Assembly: GCF_015624505.1 (NCBI RefSeq)
Contig: NZ_CP061379.1
Span: forward strand, 2,108,001-2,172,000
DNA: 64,000 nucleotides
Source of the DNA: Bradyrhizobium commune
GTDB lineage: Bacteria; Pseudomonadota; Alphaproteobacteria; Rhizobiales; Xanthobacteraceae
Reading direction: 5' to 3'
In this document: piece after piece, positions 49,758 to 54,977 of the stretch
Numbering within the stretch: position 1 is the first letter of the stretch
How the letters are laid out: each line of letters begins with the position of its first letter
The notes under the pieces: model-generated
Told to the model about the DNA's origin: nothing
The model's database searches: none
What the model saw: only the letters and a program-made list of their open reading frames with translations
Position numbers and translations under genes: made by a program

Positions 49758-51980
49758 ATGCCGATGGACAATGTGAAACTGCTCGACGGCCCCCTGTCGG
49801 GACTGGTGGCTTCCGCCGTCGAATACATGGTCGATGCCGGACAGCGCAGCGTGCTGTTTTTAGACATCATGCGTCAGCGCGGCGATCAATATCGCGAGCA
49901 TGTCGCCCAGACCGCGCCGCATGTGCTGCAATATGCCGCCGAATTGATCACCGACGGCCGCACGCTGGAGGAGCCGGTCAATTACGCGCTGGTGCGGATC
50001 ATTCCGCCGAAGGACGTCGAGATCGACATGGGCCGGCGGCCCTTCGTCGTGGTCGATCCGCGCGCCGGCCACGGTCCGGGCATCGGCGGCTTCAAGGCGG
50101 ACAGCGAAATCGGCGTTGCGATGAAGGCCGGACATCCCTGCTATTTCATCGGGTTCCTGCCGGAGCCGGTGCCGGGCCAGACCATCGAGCGGATCGCGCG
50201 GGCCGAAGCGAAATTCATCGAGACCGTCATCAGCCGCCATCCCGATGCCGACGGAAAGCCTTGTGTGATCGGCAATTGCCAGGCCGGCTGGGCCGTCATG
50301 ATCCTGGCCTCGCTGCGGCCGGAGCTGTTCGGGCCGCTGATCATCGCCGGCGCACCGCTTGCCTATTGGGCAGGCGTGCACGGCCAATATCCGATGCGCT
50401 ATTCGGGCGGCCTGTTGGGCGGAAGCTGGCTCACGGCGCTCACGAGTGACCTCGGCGCCGGCAAGTTCGACGGTGCCTGGCTGGTGCAGAACTTCGAGAA
50501 CCAGAATCCGTCGAACACGCTCTGGACCAAGCAATATAACGTCTATTCCAAGGTCGACACCGAGGCCGAGCGCTACCTCGATTTCGAGCGCTGGTGGGGC
50601 GGGCACGTCAATCTCAATGCCGAGGAGATCCAGTTCATCGTCGATGAGCTGTTCATCGGCAACAATCTCGCCGCCGGCCGGATCGAGATGTCCGACGGCC
50701 AGAAGGTCGATCTGCGCAACATCCGTTCGCCGATCCTGGTGTTCTGCTCCAAGGGCGACAACGTCACCCCGCCACAGCAGGCGCTGGACTGGATCCTCGA
50801 CTGCTATGCCGATGTCGACGAGATCAGGGCCTATGGCCAGACCATCGTCTACACCGTTCACGACAGCATCGGCCATCTCGGCATCTTCGTGTCCGGCGGG
50901 GTGGCCAGGAAGGAGCATGCGGAGTTCTCCAGCAATATCGACCTGATCGACGTGCTGCCGCCCGGGCTCTATGAAGCGACCTTCGAGGCTCGTGGTAACG
51001 AGACGCTCAATGCCGATCTCGCGGCAGGCCAGTGGGTGATGCGCTGCGAGGCGCGTACGCTCGACGATATCCGCGCCATCGGCGGCAATTCGCCCGAAGA
51101 CGAGCGGCGGTTTGCGGCAGCCAAGCGCGTCTCGGAGCTCAATCTCGCGGCCTATCAGAAATTCGTGCAGCCCTGGGTCAAAAGGATGGTGACGCCGCAG
51201 GTGGCGAACTGGGCGCGCAACATGCATCCGCTGCGACTTCAGTACGAAGCCTTCAGCAGCAAGAACCCCTTGATGTCCTCGGTCAGGTCGGCCGCCGATC
51301 GGGTCGAGGACAATCGCAGGCCGGTCTCGAAGGACAATCCGTTCCTGGCGTTCCAGGAGCAGATGTCGAAGCAGATCGTGCACGCGCTGGATAGCTGGCG
51401 CGACGCACAGGAGAGGCTGAGCGAGACGATCTTCCTGAATGTCTATGGCTCGCCGGTGCTTCAGGCCGCGGTCGGCATCGATCCGAGCTCCGCGCCGTCG
51501 CGCCGCCGCGAGATGTCGGCGGAGCACCGCGCCATGCTCGACAGGCGGGTCGCGGAGTTGAAGTCGAAGATCGACGAGGGCGGTCTGCGCGAAGCGGCTA
51601 TTCGCGCGCTGCTCTATGTCGGCTCGGCGCGCGGCATGGTGGACGAACGGAGCATCGAGGCGCTGCGGCAGATCCGGCGCGATCATCCCGGTGAGCGGCT
51701 GACGCTCGCCGAATTCAAGATGCTGGTGCGCGAGCAGTTCTTCATGCTGCTGCTGGACCGGGAGGCGGCGCTTGCCACCATTCCGACCATGCTGCCGAAC
51801 GATCTCAATCAGAAGCGCGCGGCGTTCGCGGCCATGCGCGAGGTGCTGTCGGCGAGCGAGGACATCAGCGGCGAGCGCGCCAACCGCCTGAAGCGCGTCG
51901 CCGAACTGTTCGGTCTGGACGGGGAAGGAGAGTGGACGTCGAATGTCGCCCCTTTCGACCCGCAGGCAAGGGCGTCGTAA
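49758..51980 (+). CDS. DUF3141 PHA-synthase-like alpha/beta hydrolase
   Basis: The 740-residue protein has an N-terminal alpha/beta hydrolase core related to PhaC: FVVVDPRAGHGPGIGGFKAD, the nucleophile elbow GNCQAG with Cys174 as in polyester synthases, PILVFCSKGDNVTPP for the acid and HDSIGHLG for the histidine. The long C-terminal helical region of about 300 residues is specific to DUF3141 proteins. Polymerase or thioesterase activity on hydroxyacyl-CoA is plausible but unproven. The ATG at 49758 is preferred to 49707, which overlaps the FixK-driven leader. It heads the pta-ackA-fabI operon. Confidence 0.85.
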   Translation: MPMDNVKLLDGPLSGLVASAVEYMVDAGQRSVLFLDIMRQRGDQYREHVAQTAPHVLQYAAELITDGRTLEEPVNYALVRIIPPKDVEIDMGRRPFVVVDPRAGHGPGIGGFKADSEIGVAMKAGHPCYFIGFLPEPVPGQTIERIARAEAKFIETVISRHPDADGKPCVIGNCQAGWAVMILASLRPELFGPLIIAGAPLAYWAGVHGQYPMRYSGGLLGGSWLTALTSDLGAGKFDGAWLVQNFENQNPSNTLWTKQYNVYSKVDTEAERYLDFERWWGGHVNLNAEEIQFIVDELFIGNNLAAGRIEMSDGQKVDLRNIRSPILVFCSKGDNVTPPQQALDWILDCYADVDEIRAYGQTIVYTVHDSIGHLGIFVSGGVARKEHAEFSSNIDLIDVLPPGLYEATFEARGNETLNADLAAGQWVMRCEARTLDDIRAIGGNSPEDERRFAAAKRVSELNLAAYQKFVQPWVKRMVTPQVANWARNMHPLRLQYEAFSSKNPLMSSVRSAADRVEDNRRPVSKDNPFLAFQEQMSKQIVHALDSWRDAQERLSETIFLNVYGSPVLQAAVGIDPSSAPSRRREMSAEHRAMLDRRVAELKSKIDEGGLREAAIRALLYVGSARGMVDERSIEALRQIRRDHPGERLTLAEFKMLVREQFFMLLLDREAALATIPTMLPNDLNQKRAAFAAMREVLSASEDISGERANRLKRVAELFGLDGEGEWTSNVAPFDPQARAS

Positions 51981-52009
51981 CGCGGATTGGCGGGAGCGGG
52001 AGCGACACG

Positions 52010-54192: not shown

Positions 54193-54977
54193 TCCCCGTC
54201 TTTCCGGACAGCAAGGTCGCCCTCAAGGGCAAGAAAGGCCTCGTCGTCGGCATTGCCAACGACCAGTCGATCGCTTGGGGCTGCGCGCGGGCGTTTCGCG
54301 CGCTCGGCGCCGATCTCGCCGTCACCTATCTCAACGACCGCGCCAGGAAGCATGTCGAGCCATTGGCACAGGCGCTGGAGGCGCCGATCTTCATGCCGCT
54401 GGACGTGATGGTCGACGGCCAGACCGAGGCGGTGTTCGAACGCATCACGGCGGAGTGGGGACAGCTCGACTTCCTGCTGCACTCGATCGCGTTCTCGCCC
54501 AAAGAAGCCTTGCACGGCCGCGTCGTTGACGTCGGCCGCGACGGCTTCCTCAAGACCATGGACGTCTCCTGCTGGTCGTTCCTGCGCATGGCCCATCTTG
54601 CCGAGCCGCTGATGAAGAACGGCGGCACCCTGTTCACCATGACCTACTATGGCAGCCAGATGGTGGTGGACAATTACAACATCATGGGCGTCGCCAAGGC
54701 GGCACTCGAGGCCTCCGTCCGCTATGCCGCCGCCGAGCTCGGTCCGAAGGGTATCCGCGTGCACGCGATTTCGCCGGGACCGCTGGCGACACGCGCGGCG
54801 TCAGGCATTCCCGAGTTCGACGAGCTCATGGACAAGGCGCAGTCGAAGGCGCCGGCGCGCAGCCTCGTCAGCATCGACGATGTCGGCAACGCCACCGCAT
54901 TCCTCGCACTCGACGGCGCCAAGCTGATCACCGGCAGCGTGCTCTATATCGACGGCGGATATCACATCATCGACTAG
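54189..54977 (+). CDS. fabI: Enoyl-[acyl-carrier-protein] reductase (NADH)
   Basis: The 262-residue FabI has the NADH site VVGIANDQSIAWG and the catalytic pair Tyr153 (TYYG) and Tyr163 with Lys170 in NYNIMGVAK, matching E. coli Tyr146, Tyr156 and Lys163. It catalyses the last reduction in fatty acid elongation. Its start overlaps the ackA stop (ATGA). An extra FabI inside a low-oxygen operon is unusual; it may recycle NADH or supply lipid under micro-oxic growth. A housekeeping fabI would be expected elsewhere. Confidence 0.92.
   Translation: MIPVFPDSKVALKGKKGLVVGIANDQSIAWGCARAFRALGADLAVTYLNDRARKHVEPLAQALEAPIFMPLDVMVDGQTEAVFERITAEWGQLDFLLHSIAFSPKEALHGRVVDVGRDGFLKTMDVSCWSFLRMAHLAEPLMKNGGTLFTMTYYGSQMVVDNYNIMGVAKAALEASVRYAAAELGPKGIRVHAISPGPLATRAASGIPEFDELMDKAQSKAPARSLVSIDDVGNATAFLALDGAKLITGSVLYIDGGYHIID

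What the first reader, a model, noticed from the sequence alone, without database searches (positions are those of the whole stretch)
49758..54977. PhaC-fold protein joined to Pta, AckA and FabI in one low-oxygen operon
A Cys-nucleophile polyester-synthase relative, an acetyl-CoA-to-ATP route and a second enoyl-ACP reductase share one FixK box and very tight spacing. It suggests a fermentative system that balances acyl-CoA, NADH and ATP when oxygen falls. The role of DUF3141 is unknown.
Basis: partly seen in the sequence, partly recalled or inferred. Interest (0 to 1): 0.7.

Follow-up and report, generated by a model that had tools for sequence, protein, structure and literature searches.

The report
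Likely low-oxygen storage-polymer energy operon
This soil bacterium carries a known but unexplained four-gene operon, probably switched on when oxygen runs low, whose enzymes look rebuilt to turn four-carbon building blocks of its storage plastic, not only acetate, into excreted acid and ATP.

Summary
In detail: DUF3141, phosphotransacylase, acetate-type kinase and FabI-like genes lie in tandem (gaps 29, 5, -4 bp) behind a perfect FixK/FNR box. The arrangement is already in print (S. meliloti ORF-pta-ack-fabI; Burkholderia phaC-pta-ack-fabI; B. diazoefficiens blr3456-3459), so the operon itself is not new. Three points change the reading. (1) 'Pta' is PTB-type: nearest solved relative is phosphate butyryltransferase (4.5e-66; best Pta 1.5e-14). 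(2) The kinase has Ala for the acetate-pocket Pro in 42 of 42 operon copies examined. (3) The 'FabI' has Asp/Glu at E. coli Arg204 (a recalled ACP contact) in 49 of 49 operon copies, against Arg in 29 of 30 canonical FabIs. DUF3141 folds like PHA synthase with a conserved Cys-Asp-His, and 27 of 27 sampled DUF3141 genomes also hold a PhaC match (188 of 398 overall). A CoA-transferase pair next door carries its own FixK box (15 of 16 loci so arranged) and sits inside the operon in two Paracoccus. Best explanation (0.5): a low-oxygen module for C4/hydroxyacyl-CoA linked to PHB, with substrate-level ATP; product (acetate, 3-hydroxybutyrate, butyrate) open. No activity has been shown.

The parts
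49691..49704 (+). FixK/FNR box TTGACCTAAATCAA of the operon
   Evidence: Perfect TTGAY-N4-RTCAA; conserved upstream of DUF3141 in 25 of 41 four-gene loci, window included
49758..51980 (+). DUF3141 (PF11339) PhaC-fold protein; predicted triad C174-D334-H373; C-terminal helical tail, possibly TerB-like
52010..52972 (+). PTB-type phosphotransacylase (annotated pta elsewhere)
   Evidence: PRK11890 515 bits, TIGR02706 Ptb 306, TIGR00651 Pta 64; best PDB 7vg9 phosphate butyryltransferase
52978..54192 (+). acetate/propionate-family kinase with Ala (A231) at the M. thermophila Pro232 position
   Evidence: TIGR00016 349.7 bits; alignments
54189..54977 (+). FabI-like enoyl-thioester reductase, Asp (D211) at the E. 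coli R204 position
   Evidence: NF005717 445 bits; alignment
58444..59091 (-). 3-oxoacid/acetate CoA-transferase alpha subunit
   Evidence: NCBIfam PRK09920 260 bits (below its 315 cut-off), TIGR02429 207 bits (over its cut-off)
57788..58447 (-). 3-oxoacid CoA-transferase beta subunit
   Evidence: NCBIfam TIGR02428 308 bits, over its cut-off
59161..59174 (-). FixK box upstream of the CoA-transferase genes
   Evidence: Perfect match; conserved in 15 of 16 loci of this arrangement, 15 of all 20
48534..48547 (+). FixK box upstream of the AI-2E transporter gene
   Evidence: Perfect match; perfect box in 11 of 18 homologous neighbours
48612..49694 (+). AI-2E family transporter, possible co-regulated exporter
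   Evidence: PF01594 141 bits
59905..60651 (-). FixK/FNR-type regulator (candidate regulator of these boxes)
   Evidence: NCBIfam NF050806 FixK 216 bits, below its 300-bit cut-off

Best explanation
At low oxygen a FixK/FNR-type protein turns on DUF3141-ptb-ack-fabI, the convergently placed CoA-transferase genes and probably the AI-2E transporter. DUF3141 is a Cys-nucleophile PHA-synthase-fold acyltransferase that acts on (R)-3-hydroxyacyl-CoA or on PHB chains. Which direction it runs, and whether it polymerises, thiolyses or primes, is open. The PTB-type transacylase and the pocket-altered kinase convert C4-type acyl- or hydroxyacyl-CoA (and probably also acetyl- and propionyl-CoA) to acyl-phosphate and then acid plus ATP. 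The FabI-like enzyme reduces an enoyl-CoA such as crotonyl-CoA with NADH. The CoA-transferase and, in related loci, a MaoC hydratase feed and drain the same pool. Net effect: stored or overflow C4 units give ATP without respiration and can take up NADH, with 3-hydroxybutyrate, butyrate and/or acetate leaving the cell. Shown here: gene content, boxes, fold, residue patterns, co-occurrence. Inferred: all substrates, directions and products.
For: PTB-type assignment. Kinase Pro-to-Ala in 42/42 operon kinases (window plus 41 of the 44 loci with a kinase; L049, L099, L102 dropped as split, inverted or cut); among 50 control kinases A/T in 12/12 Ptb-linked and P in 33/38 not seen linked. Pro232 is a published acetate-binding determinant (PMC4390882, passage). 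FabI: E. coli R204 position D/E in 49/49 operon copies, R in 29/30 distinct canonical ones, catalytic Y156/K163 kept. PhaC fold and triad. PhaC co-occurrence 27/27 versus 188/398; outside Alphaproteobacteria 10/10 versus 64/263. Second FixK-box unit for the CoA-transferase, merged into the operon in two Paracoccus loci. MaoC fused to PTB in L102 by Pfam. A MaoC gene beside the CoA-transferase, 5.2-5.5 kb from the DUF3141 start, in 10 Bradyrhizobium loci and 8-12 kb away in 4 more (Pfam checked on one). A PhaC-like gene between DUF3141 and FabI in Microvirga. In B. diazoefficiens blr3456, first gene of predicted operon blr3456-3459, rises 7.2-fold in mRNA and log2 7.2 in protein when the PHB-linked regulator PhaR is deleted (PMC10888616, passages). 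The PTB is the genome's only phosphotransacylase-family hit besides one in a 775-aa open frame, probably a malic enzyme.
Against: No activity data. PhaC profile cut-offs are missed by far (26.9 of 365.3 bits). PhaC1 is reported as the only enzyme needed for PHB polymerisation in B. diazoefficiens, and PhaC and PhaZ paralogues were not found on granules (PMC10888616). The blr3456 rise in the phaR mutant may be indirect through FixK2, which also rises there; PhaR binding to that promoter was not among the EMSAs reported. 26 of 80 loci have no partner gene within 7 kb (21 with room, of which L042 has the trio 8 kb away; 5 cut), so DUF3141 may act alone. In this window no MaoC lies beside the CoA-transferase; the nearest homologue in the window is at 21910-22320. 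Of the three recalled E. coli ACP contacts only R204 is kept by canonical alphaproteobacterial FabIs (K201 and K205 are not, 31 of 31 rows), and the net charge of the 21-residue stretch overlaps in part (operon -2 to +1, canonical +1 to +2). Five of 38 kinases not seen linked to PTB also have A/T. Two of the 27 DUF3141 genomes carry copies with inner stops (G187, G253). The S. meliloti relative was reported with phosphotransacetylase activity (recalled), so acetyl-CoA is a likely substrate too. Residue correlations are not phylogenetically independent.
Confidence: 0.5

Rival explanations
1. Plain acetate overflow: acetyl-CoA to acetyl-phosphate to acetate plus ATP at low oxygen. FabI adjusts membrane fatty acids and DUF3141 is an unrelated passenger or regulator.
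For: B. diazoefficiens blr3457/blr3458 are read this way in PMC10888616 (passage). S. meliloti pta/ackA were linked to acetyl activity (recalled abstract of Summers 1999; paper not held). Kinase passes the ackA subfamily cut-off.
Against: PTB-type transacylase, kinase pocket change, loss of the conserved docking Arg in the FabI, two other FabI genes in the genome, PhaC co-occurrence.
Confidence: 0.22
2. Assimilation in reverse: kinase plus PTB spend ATP to activate excreted or scavenged acids (acetate, 3-hydroxybutyrate, butyrate) to CoA thioesters that DUF3141 stores as polyester, a natural counterpart of the engineered butyrate kinase-phosphotransbutyrylase-PHA synthase route.
For: Engineered route described in PMC9137767 (passage). 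The Burkholderia review proposes acetate storage as PHA for the phaC/pta/ack cluster (PMC8231600, passage).
Against: Low-oxygen box, where ATP is expected to be short. A reductase in the operon would divert enoyl units away from polymer.
Confidence: 0.15
3. DUF3141 is a thioesterase, depolymerase or granule/scaffold protein (TerB-like tail) that controls PHB mobilisation, and the other three genes only dispose of the released acetyl and butyryl units.
Against: The top 7 structural matches are all PHA synthases; that shows fold, not function.
Confidence: 0.13

Closest known systems
Sinorhizobium meliloti ORF-pta-ack-fabI operon (Summers et al. 1999; seen only as described in PMC8231600, and recalled)
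   Same: Same four-gene order; Ensifer/Sinorhizobium loci L049-L051 hold DUF3141-PTB-ACK-FABI (the L049 kinase is split into two matches)
   Different: Described as PhoB/phosphate-starvation controlled; here a FixK box leads the operon (Pho boxes not tested)
Burkholderia phaC-pta-ack-fabI clusters, groups D1/D2 (PMC8231600, passages)
   Same: Same partner genes; PhaJ-Pta fusion and phaB point to hydroxyacyl-CoA
   Different: First gene is described there as a phaC (PHA synthase), not DUF3141
B. diazoefficiens blr3456-blr3459 (PMC10888616, passages)
   Same: Predicted operon; blr3457 called pta and blr3458 ackA there; raised in the phaR mutant under micro-oxia. Orthology of blr3456 to this gene is inferred from position and genus
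   Different: Interpreted there as acetate/ATP metabolism; blr3456 called hypothetical
Clostridial Ptb-Buk butyrate pathway (recalled)
   Same: PTB-type transacylase followed by an acid kinase that makes ATP
   Different: Kinase is of the acetate-kinase type (ackA 349.7 bits, butyrate kinase 47.3); a FabI-like protein, not Bcd/Etf, would reduce crotonyl-CoA
Engineered butyrate kinase-phosphotransbutyrylase-PHA synthase pathway (as described in PMC9137767)
   Same: Acid kinase, PTB and PHA-synthase-type enzyme together
   Different: Engineered and run towards polymer; no reductase

Membership tests
PHA synthase (PhaC) | alpha/beta-hydrolase fold of PhaC type | tested here: met
PHA synthase (PhaC) | Cys-Asp-His triad and G-X-C-X-(G/A)-G box | tested here: met
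   C174, D334, H373 align with C342, D497, H525 of the genome's own PhaC; GNCQAG; invariant in 18/18; C and D 81/81
PHA synthase (PhaC) | passes a curated PhaC profile cut-off | tested here: not met
   TIGR01836 26.9 of 365.3 bits, TIGR01838 22.2 of 622.65
PHA synthase (PhaC) | polymerises hydroxyacyl-CoA | not testable with these tools
   needs an enzyme assay
DUF3141 (PF11339) | Pfam gathering score | tested here: met
   976.9 against 29.7 bits
Phosphate butyryltransferase (Ptb) equivalog | TIGR02706 cut-off | tested here: not met
   306.4 of 410.5 bits: PTB-type, not a named Ptb
Phosphate acetyltransferase (Pta) equivalog | TIGR00651 cut-off | tested here: not met
   63.8 of 311.2 bits; the subfamily PRK11890, which NCBI names phosphate acetyltransferase, is met, 515.2 of 413
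Acetate kinase | ackA subfamily cut-off | tested here: met
   349.7 of 293.4 bits
Acetate kinase | acetate-pocket Val93/Leu122/Pro232 | tested here: not met
   Val and Leu kept, Pro replaced by Ala in 42/42; determinants per PMC4390882
FabI enoyl-ACP reductase | PRK07533 cut-off and Tyr/Lys catalytic residues | tested here: met
   445 of 337 bits; Y156 and K163 in 49/49
FabI enoyl-ACP reductase | basic ACP-docking residue at E. coli R204 (role recalled, no paper found) | tested here: not met
   D 48, E 1 of 49 operon copies
S. meliloti-type ORF-pta-ack-fabI operon | four-gene order on one strand | tested here: met
   window; 40 of 80 loci have all partners within 7 kb, of which L099 and L102 differ in order
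S. meliloti-type ORF-pta-ack-fabI operon | Pho box / PhoB control | not tested
   no Pho-box scan was run
FixK/FNR regulon | box upstream of the first gene, conserved in relatives | tested here: met
   binding itself not testable here

The most novel reading that the evidence does not exclude
The 'acetate' operon annotated in rhizobia, Achromobacter/Bordetella, Paracoccus and some Desulfobacteraceae is a PHB-linked C4 fermentation module: (R)-3-hydroxybutyryl-CoA goes to crotonyl-CoA (MaoC), is reduced with NADH by a FabI that has left ACP for CoA, and is cashed as butyryl-phosphate for ATP, or directly as 3-hydroxybutyryl-phosphate. A new class of PhaC-fold enzyme (DUF3141) is its gateway to the storage polymer. 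Bacteria taken for strict respirers would thereby ferment their plastic when oxygen runs out.
Probability: 0.25. Interest if true: 0.82.

Novelty: new member of a known kind. Interest (0 to 1): 0.52.

Why it matters
The operon was published in 1999, with (as recalled) no symbiotic phenotype, and its first gene still has no tested function that I found. The residue patterns turn that into a test: which acyl-CoA do the transacylase and kinase prefer, and does the FabI take CoA instead of ACP? If C4 units are the answer, bacteria taken to be strict respirers have a way to make ATP and dump electrons from stored polymer, relevant to nodules, sediments and biofilms, and a new PHA-synthase-like enzyme class becomes available.

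Tried and rejected

Papers: DUF3141 is in 3 held papers; no held paper joins 4 of blr3456, DUF3141, fermentation, FixK2, poly-3-hydroxybutyrate, butyrate. Searches (no paper; 10 of 20 listed; passages looked for in one, none found) did not give the FabI-ACP contact paper, so that role is recalled. Statements on what is or is not in print rest only over an open-licence library.

Partner genes were counted at 45% identity or more within 7 kb; the FabI-like hits of L092 (36% and 26%) were dropped. The 30 control kinases with 1.5-kb flanks were tested for PTB linkage only within those flanks. Five of the 55 kinases listed were not examined (one is the window's own). Kinases of L049, L099 and L102 were dropped. 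In one search one of 30 canonical FabI loci (L147) failed to translate; with two more from the own genome and L129 = L114, 30 distinct rows remain. The 64 of 263 outside Alphaproteobacteria was counted by hand from the list.
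Full report
What is there. The window lies in a 7.6-Mb single-contig genome whose closest named protein relatives are Bradyrhizobium. Four ORFs on the + strand, 49758-54977, encode DUF3141 (740 aa), a PTA_PTB-family transacylase (320 aa), an acetate-type kinase (404 aa) and a FabI-like reductase (262 aa), with gaps of 29, 5 and -4 bp. A GAGG ends six bases before the ATG at 49758. A perfect FixK/FNR box TTGACCTAAATCAA sits at 49691-49704.

The box is not chance. Within 200 bp upstream of DUF3141, 29 of 81 loci (80 fetched plus the window) have a perfect TTGAY-N4-RTCAA, where 0.07 are expected from dinucleotide shuffles; 25 of the 41 loci with all partners have it, 4 of the other 40 do. In the whole window 11 sites with up to one mismatch were found against 4.35 expected. 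Two of the perfect ones lie before neighbours: 48534-48547 before an AI-2E transporter, and 59161-59174 before a 3-oxoacid CoA-transferase pair on the minus strand, convergent with the operon. The CoA-transferase box is perfect in 15 of 20 homologous loci, that is 15 of the 16 with the arrangement seen here. A FixK/FNR-type regulator gene is at 59905-60651.

It is already a known operon. S. meliloti ORF-pta-ack-fabI (PhoB-controlled; described in PMC8231600, passages; the 1999 paper is not held), Burkholderia phaC-pta-ack-fabI with a PhaJ-Pta fusion (same passages), and B. diazoefficiens blr3456-blr3459 (PMC10888616, passages). In the last, blr3456 rises 7.2-fold in transcript and log2 7.2 in protein in a phaR mutant under micro-oxia; PhaR is the PHB-linked regulator. 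fixK2 and most FixK2 targets rise there too, so the effect may run through FixK2; the promoter was not among those tested by EMSA. PMC4999443 (passage) reports possible FnrN/FixK control of a 'phbC' gene in some Rhizobiales without naming this operon.

Distribution. DUF3141 occurs in 27 of 398 sampled Pseudomonadota genomes, two of them with inner stops. All 27 also carry a class I PHA synthase profile match at E 1e-100 or better, against 188 of 398 overall (hypergeometric 5.6e-10), and 10 of 10 outside Alphaproteobacteria against 64 of 263 (hand count; 4.1e-7). Relatedness inflates both figures. Of 80 fetched loci, 40 have all three partners within 7 kb, 14 have one or two, 26 have none (21 with room, 5 cut); one of the 21, L042, has the trio 8 kb away. 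In two Paracoccus loci the CoA-transferase genes lie between DUF3141 and PTB. In Microvirga a PhaC-like gene (TIGR01838 551.5 bits, cut-off 622.65) lies between DUF3141 and FabI. L102 (Desulfobacteraceae MAG) has a MaoC-PTB fusion by Pfam.

The transacylase is PTB-type. NCBIfam: PRK11890 515 bits (cut-off 413; NCBI names it phosphate acetyltransferase), MaoC-fusion family PRK08190 489, phosphate butyryltransferase TIGR02706 306, phosphate acetyltransferase TIGR00651 64. Nearest solved protein: phosphate butyryltransferase 7vg9 at 4.5e-66; best entry named phosphate acetyltransferase 1.5e-14. The genome's only other PTA_PTB hit lies in a 775-aa open frame, probably a malic enzyme.

The kinase. 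M. [quoted passage not shown] In 42 of 42 operon kinases examined (window plus 41 of 44 loci) the Val and Leu are kept and the Pro is Ala; E. coli AckA and the genome's second AckA have Pro. Controls: of 50 kinases examined out of 55 listed in 80 genomes, 12 of 12 with a PTB-type neighbour have Ala or Thr, and 33 of 38 without a detected one have Pro. Ten of the 12 linked ones have no DUF3141 in the stretch, so the change goes with PTB pairing rather than with DUF3141 itself.

The FabI-like protein. E. coli Arg204, recalled as an ACP contact together with Lys201 and Lys205, is Asp in 48 and Glu in 1 of 49 operon copies, and Arg in 29 of 30 distinct canonical alphaproteobacterial FabIs; the Tyr and Lys of catalysis are kept in every row. 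Lys201 and Lys205 are not kept by the canonical set either, so the case rests on one position; net charge of the 21-residue stretch is -2 to +1 in operon copies and +1 to +2 in canonical ones. The genome has two other FabI genes scoring 318 and 301 bits against this model, so the operon copy may be free of fatty acid synthesis and may have left ACP for CoA thioesters. That last step is inference.

Putting it together. Each of the three enzymes departs from the acetate/ACP version at a substrate-related feature; the neighbours in this or related loci (CoA-transferase, MaoC, PhaC) handle acetoacetyl-, hydroxybutyryl- and crotonyl-CoA; the gene set travels with PHA synthesis; the boxes call for low oxygen; loss of a PHB-linked regulator raises the close relative. 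The simplest account is a low-oxygen C4/hydroxyacyl-CoA hub with substrate-level ATP. Whether it makes butyrate, 3-hydroxybutyrate or mainly acetate, and whether DUF3141 builds or breaks polymer, cannot be told from sequence.

Against it. PhaC1 is reported as the only enzyme needed for PHB in B. diazoefficiens (PMC10888616); many DUF3141 genes stand alone; in this window no MaoC lies beside the CoA-transferase, as it does in 10 Bradyrhizobium loci, though a 44.5%-identical homologue is at 21910-22320; residue correlations are phylogenetically correlated; acetyl-CoA use by relatives is likely (recalled). Scores: operon known, mechanism new and testable; interest 0.52.

Noticed in passing
window 48612-49694: AI-2E family transporter with its own perfect FixK box (48534-48547); homologues lie near DUF3141 in 17 of 81 loci (window included), one of them a Desulfobacteraceae contig (L102); possible exporter of the product.
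   Followed up: partly
window 59905-60651 (-): FixK/FNR-type regulator gene about 5 kb beyond the operon, below the curated FixK cut-off.
   Followed up: partly
window 59271-59720: Small ion-channel-like protein (weak K_channel_Meth match) between the CoA-transferase box and the FixK-type gene.
   Followed up: no
window 55335-56264: FGE-sulfatase-domain protein in the stretch where 10 other Bradyrhizobium loci carry a MaoC gene; no MaoC was found in that stretch here.
   Followed up: partly
window 21910-22320: MaoC homologue (44.5% identity to the L035 MaoC) some 28 kb before the operon; context not examined.
   Followed up: no
L045:9249-9710 and homologues in 18 loci: Conserved small protein of about 155 aa, no Pfam match for the one checked, recurs within about 11 kb of DUF3141 (cluster c7).
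   Followed up: partly
L045:8412-9179 and 9 other loci: PPK2 polyphosphate kinase gene within about 10 kb of DUF3141 in 10 loci (Pfam checked on one).
   Followed up: partly
L014, L017, L019 C-termini: Some DUF3141 proteins end in long Lys/Ala/Pro-rich tails reminiscent (recalled) of PHA-granule/DNA-binding PhaF tails.
   Followed up: no
window 8395-8408 and 63561-63574: Two more perfect FixK-type boxes elsewhere in the window; the genes they serve were not examined.
   Followed up: no
L057, L062, L065, L066: Rhodoplanes, two Ancylobacter and a Xanthobacteraceae locus have DUF3141 followed by FabI, with no PTB or kinase found within 7 kb.
   Followed up: no
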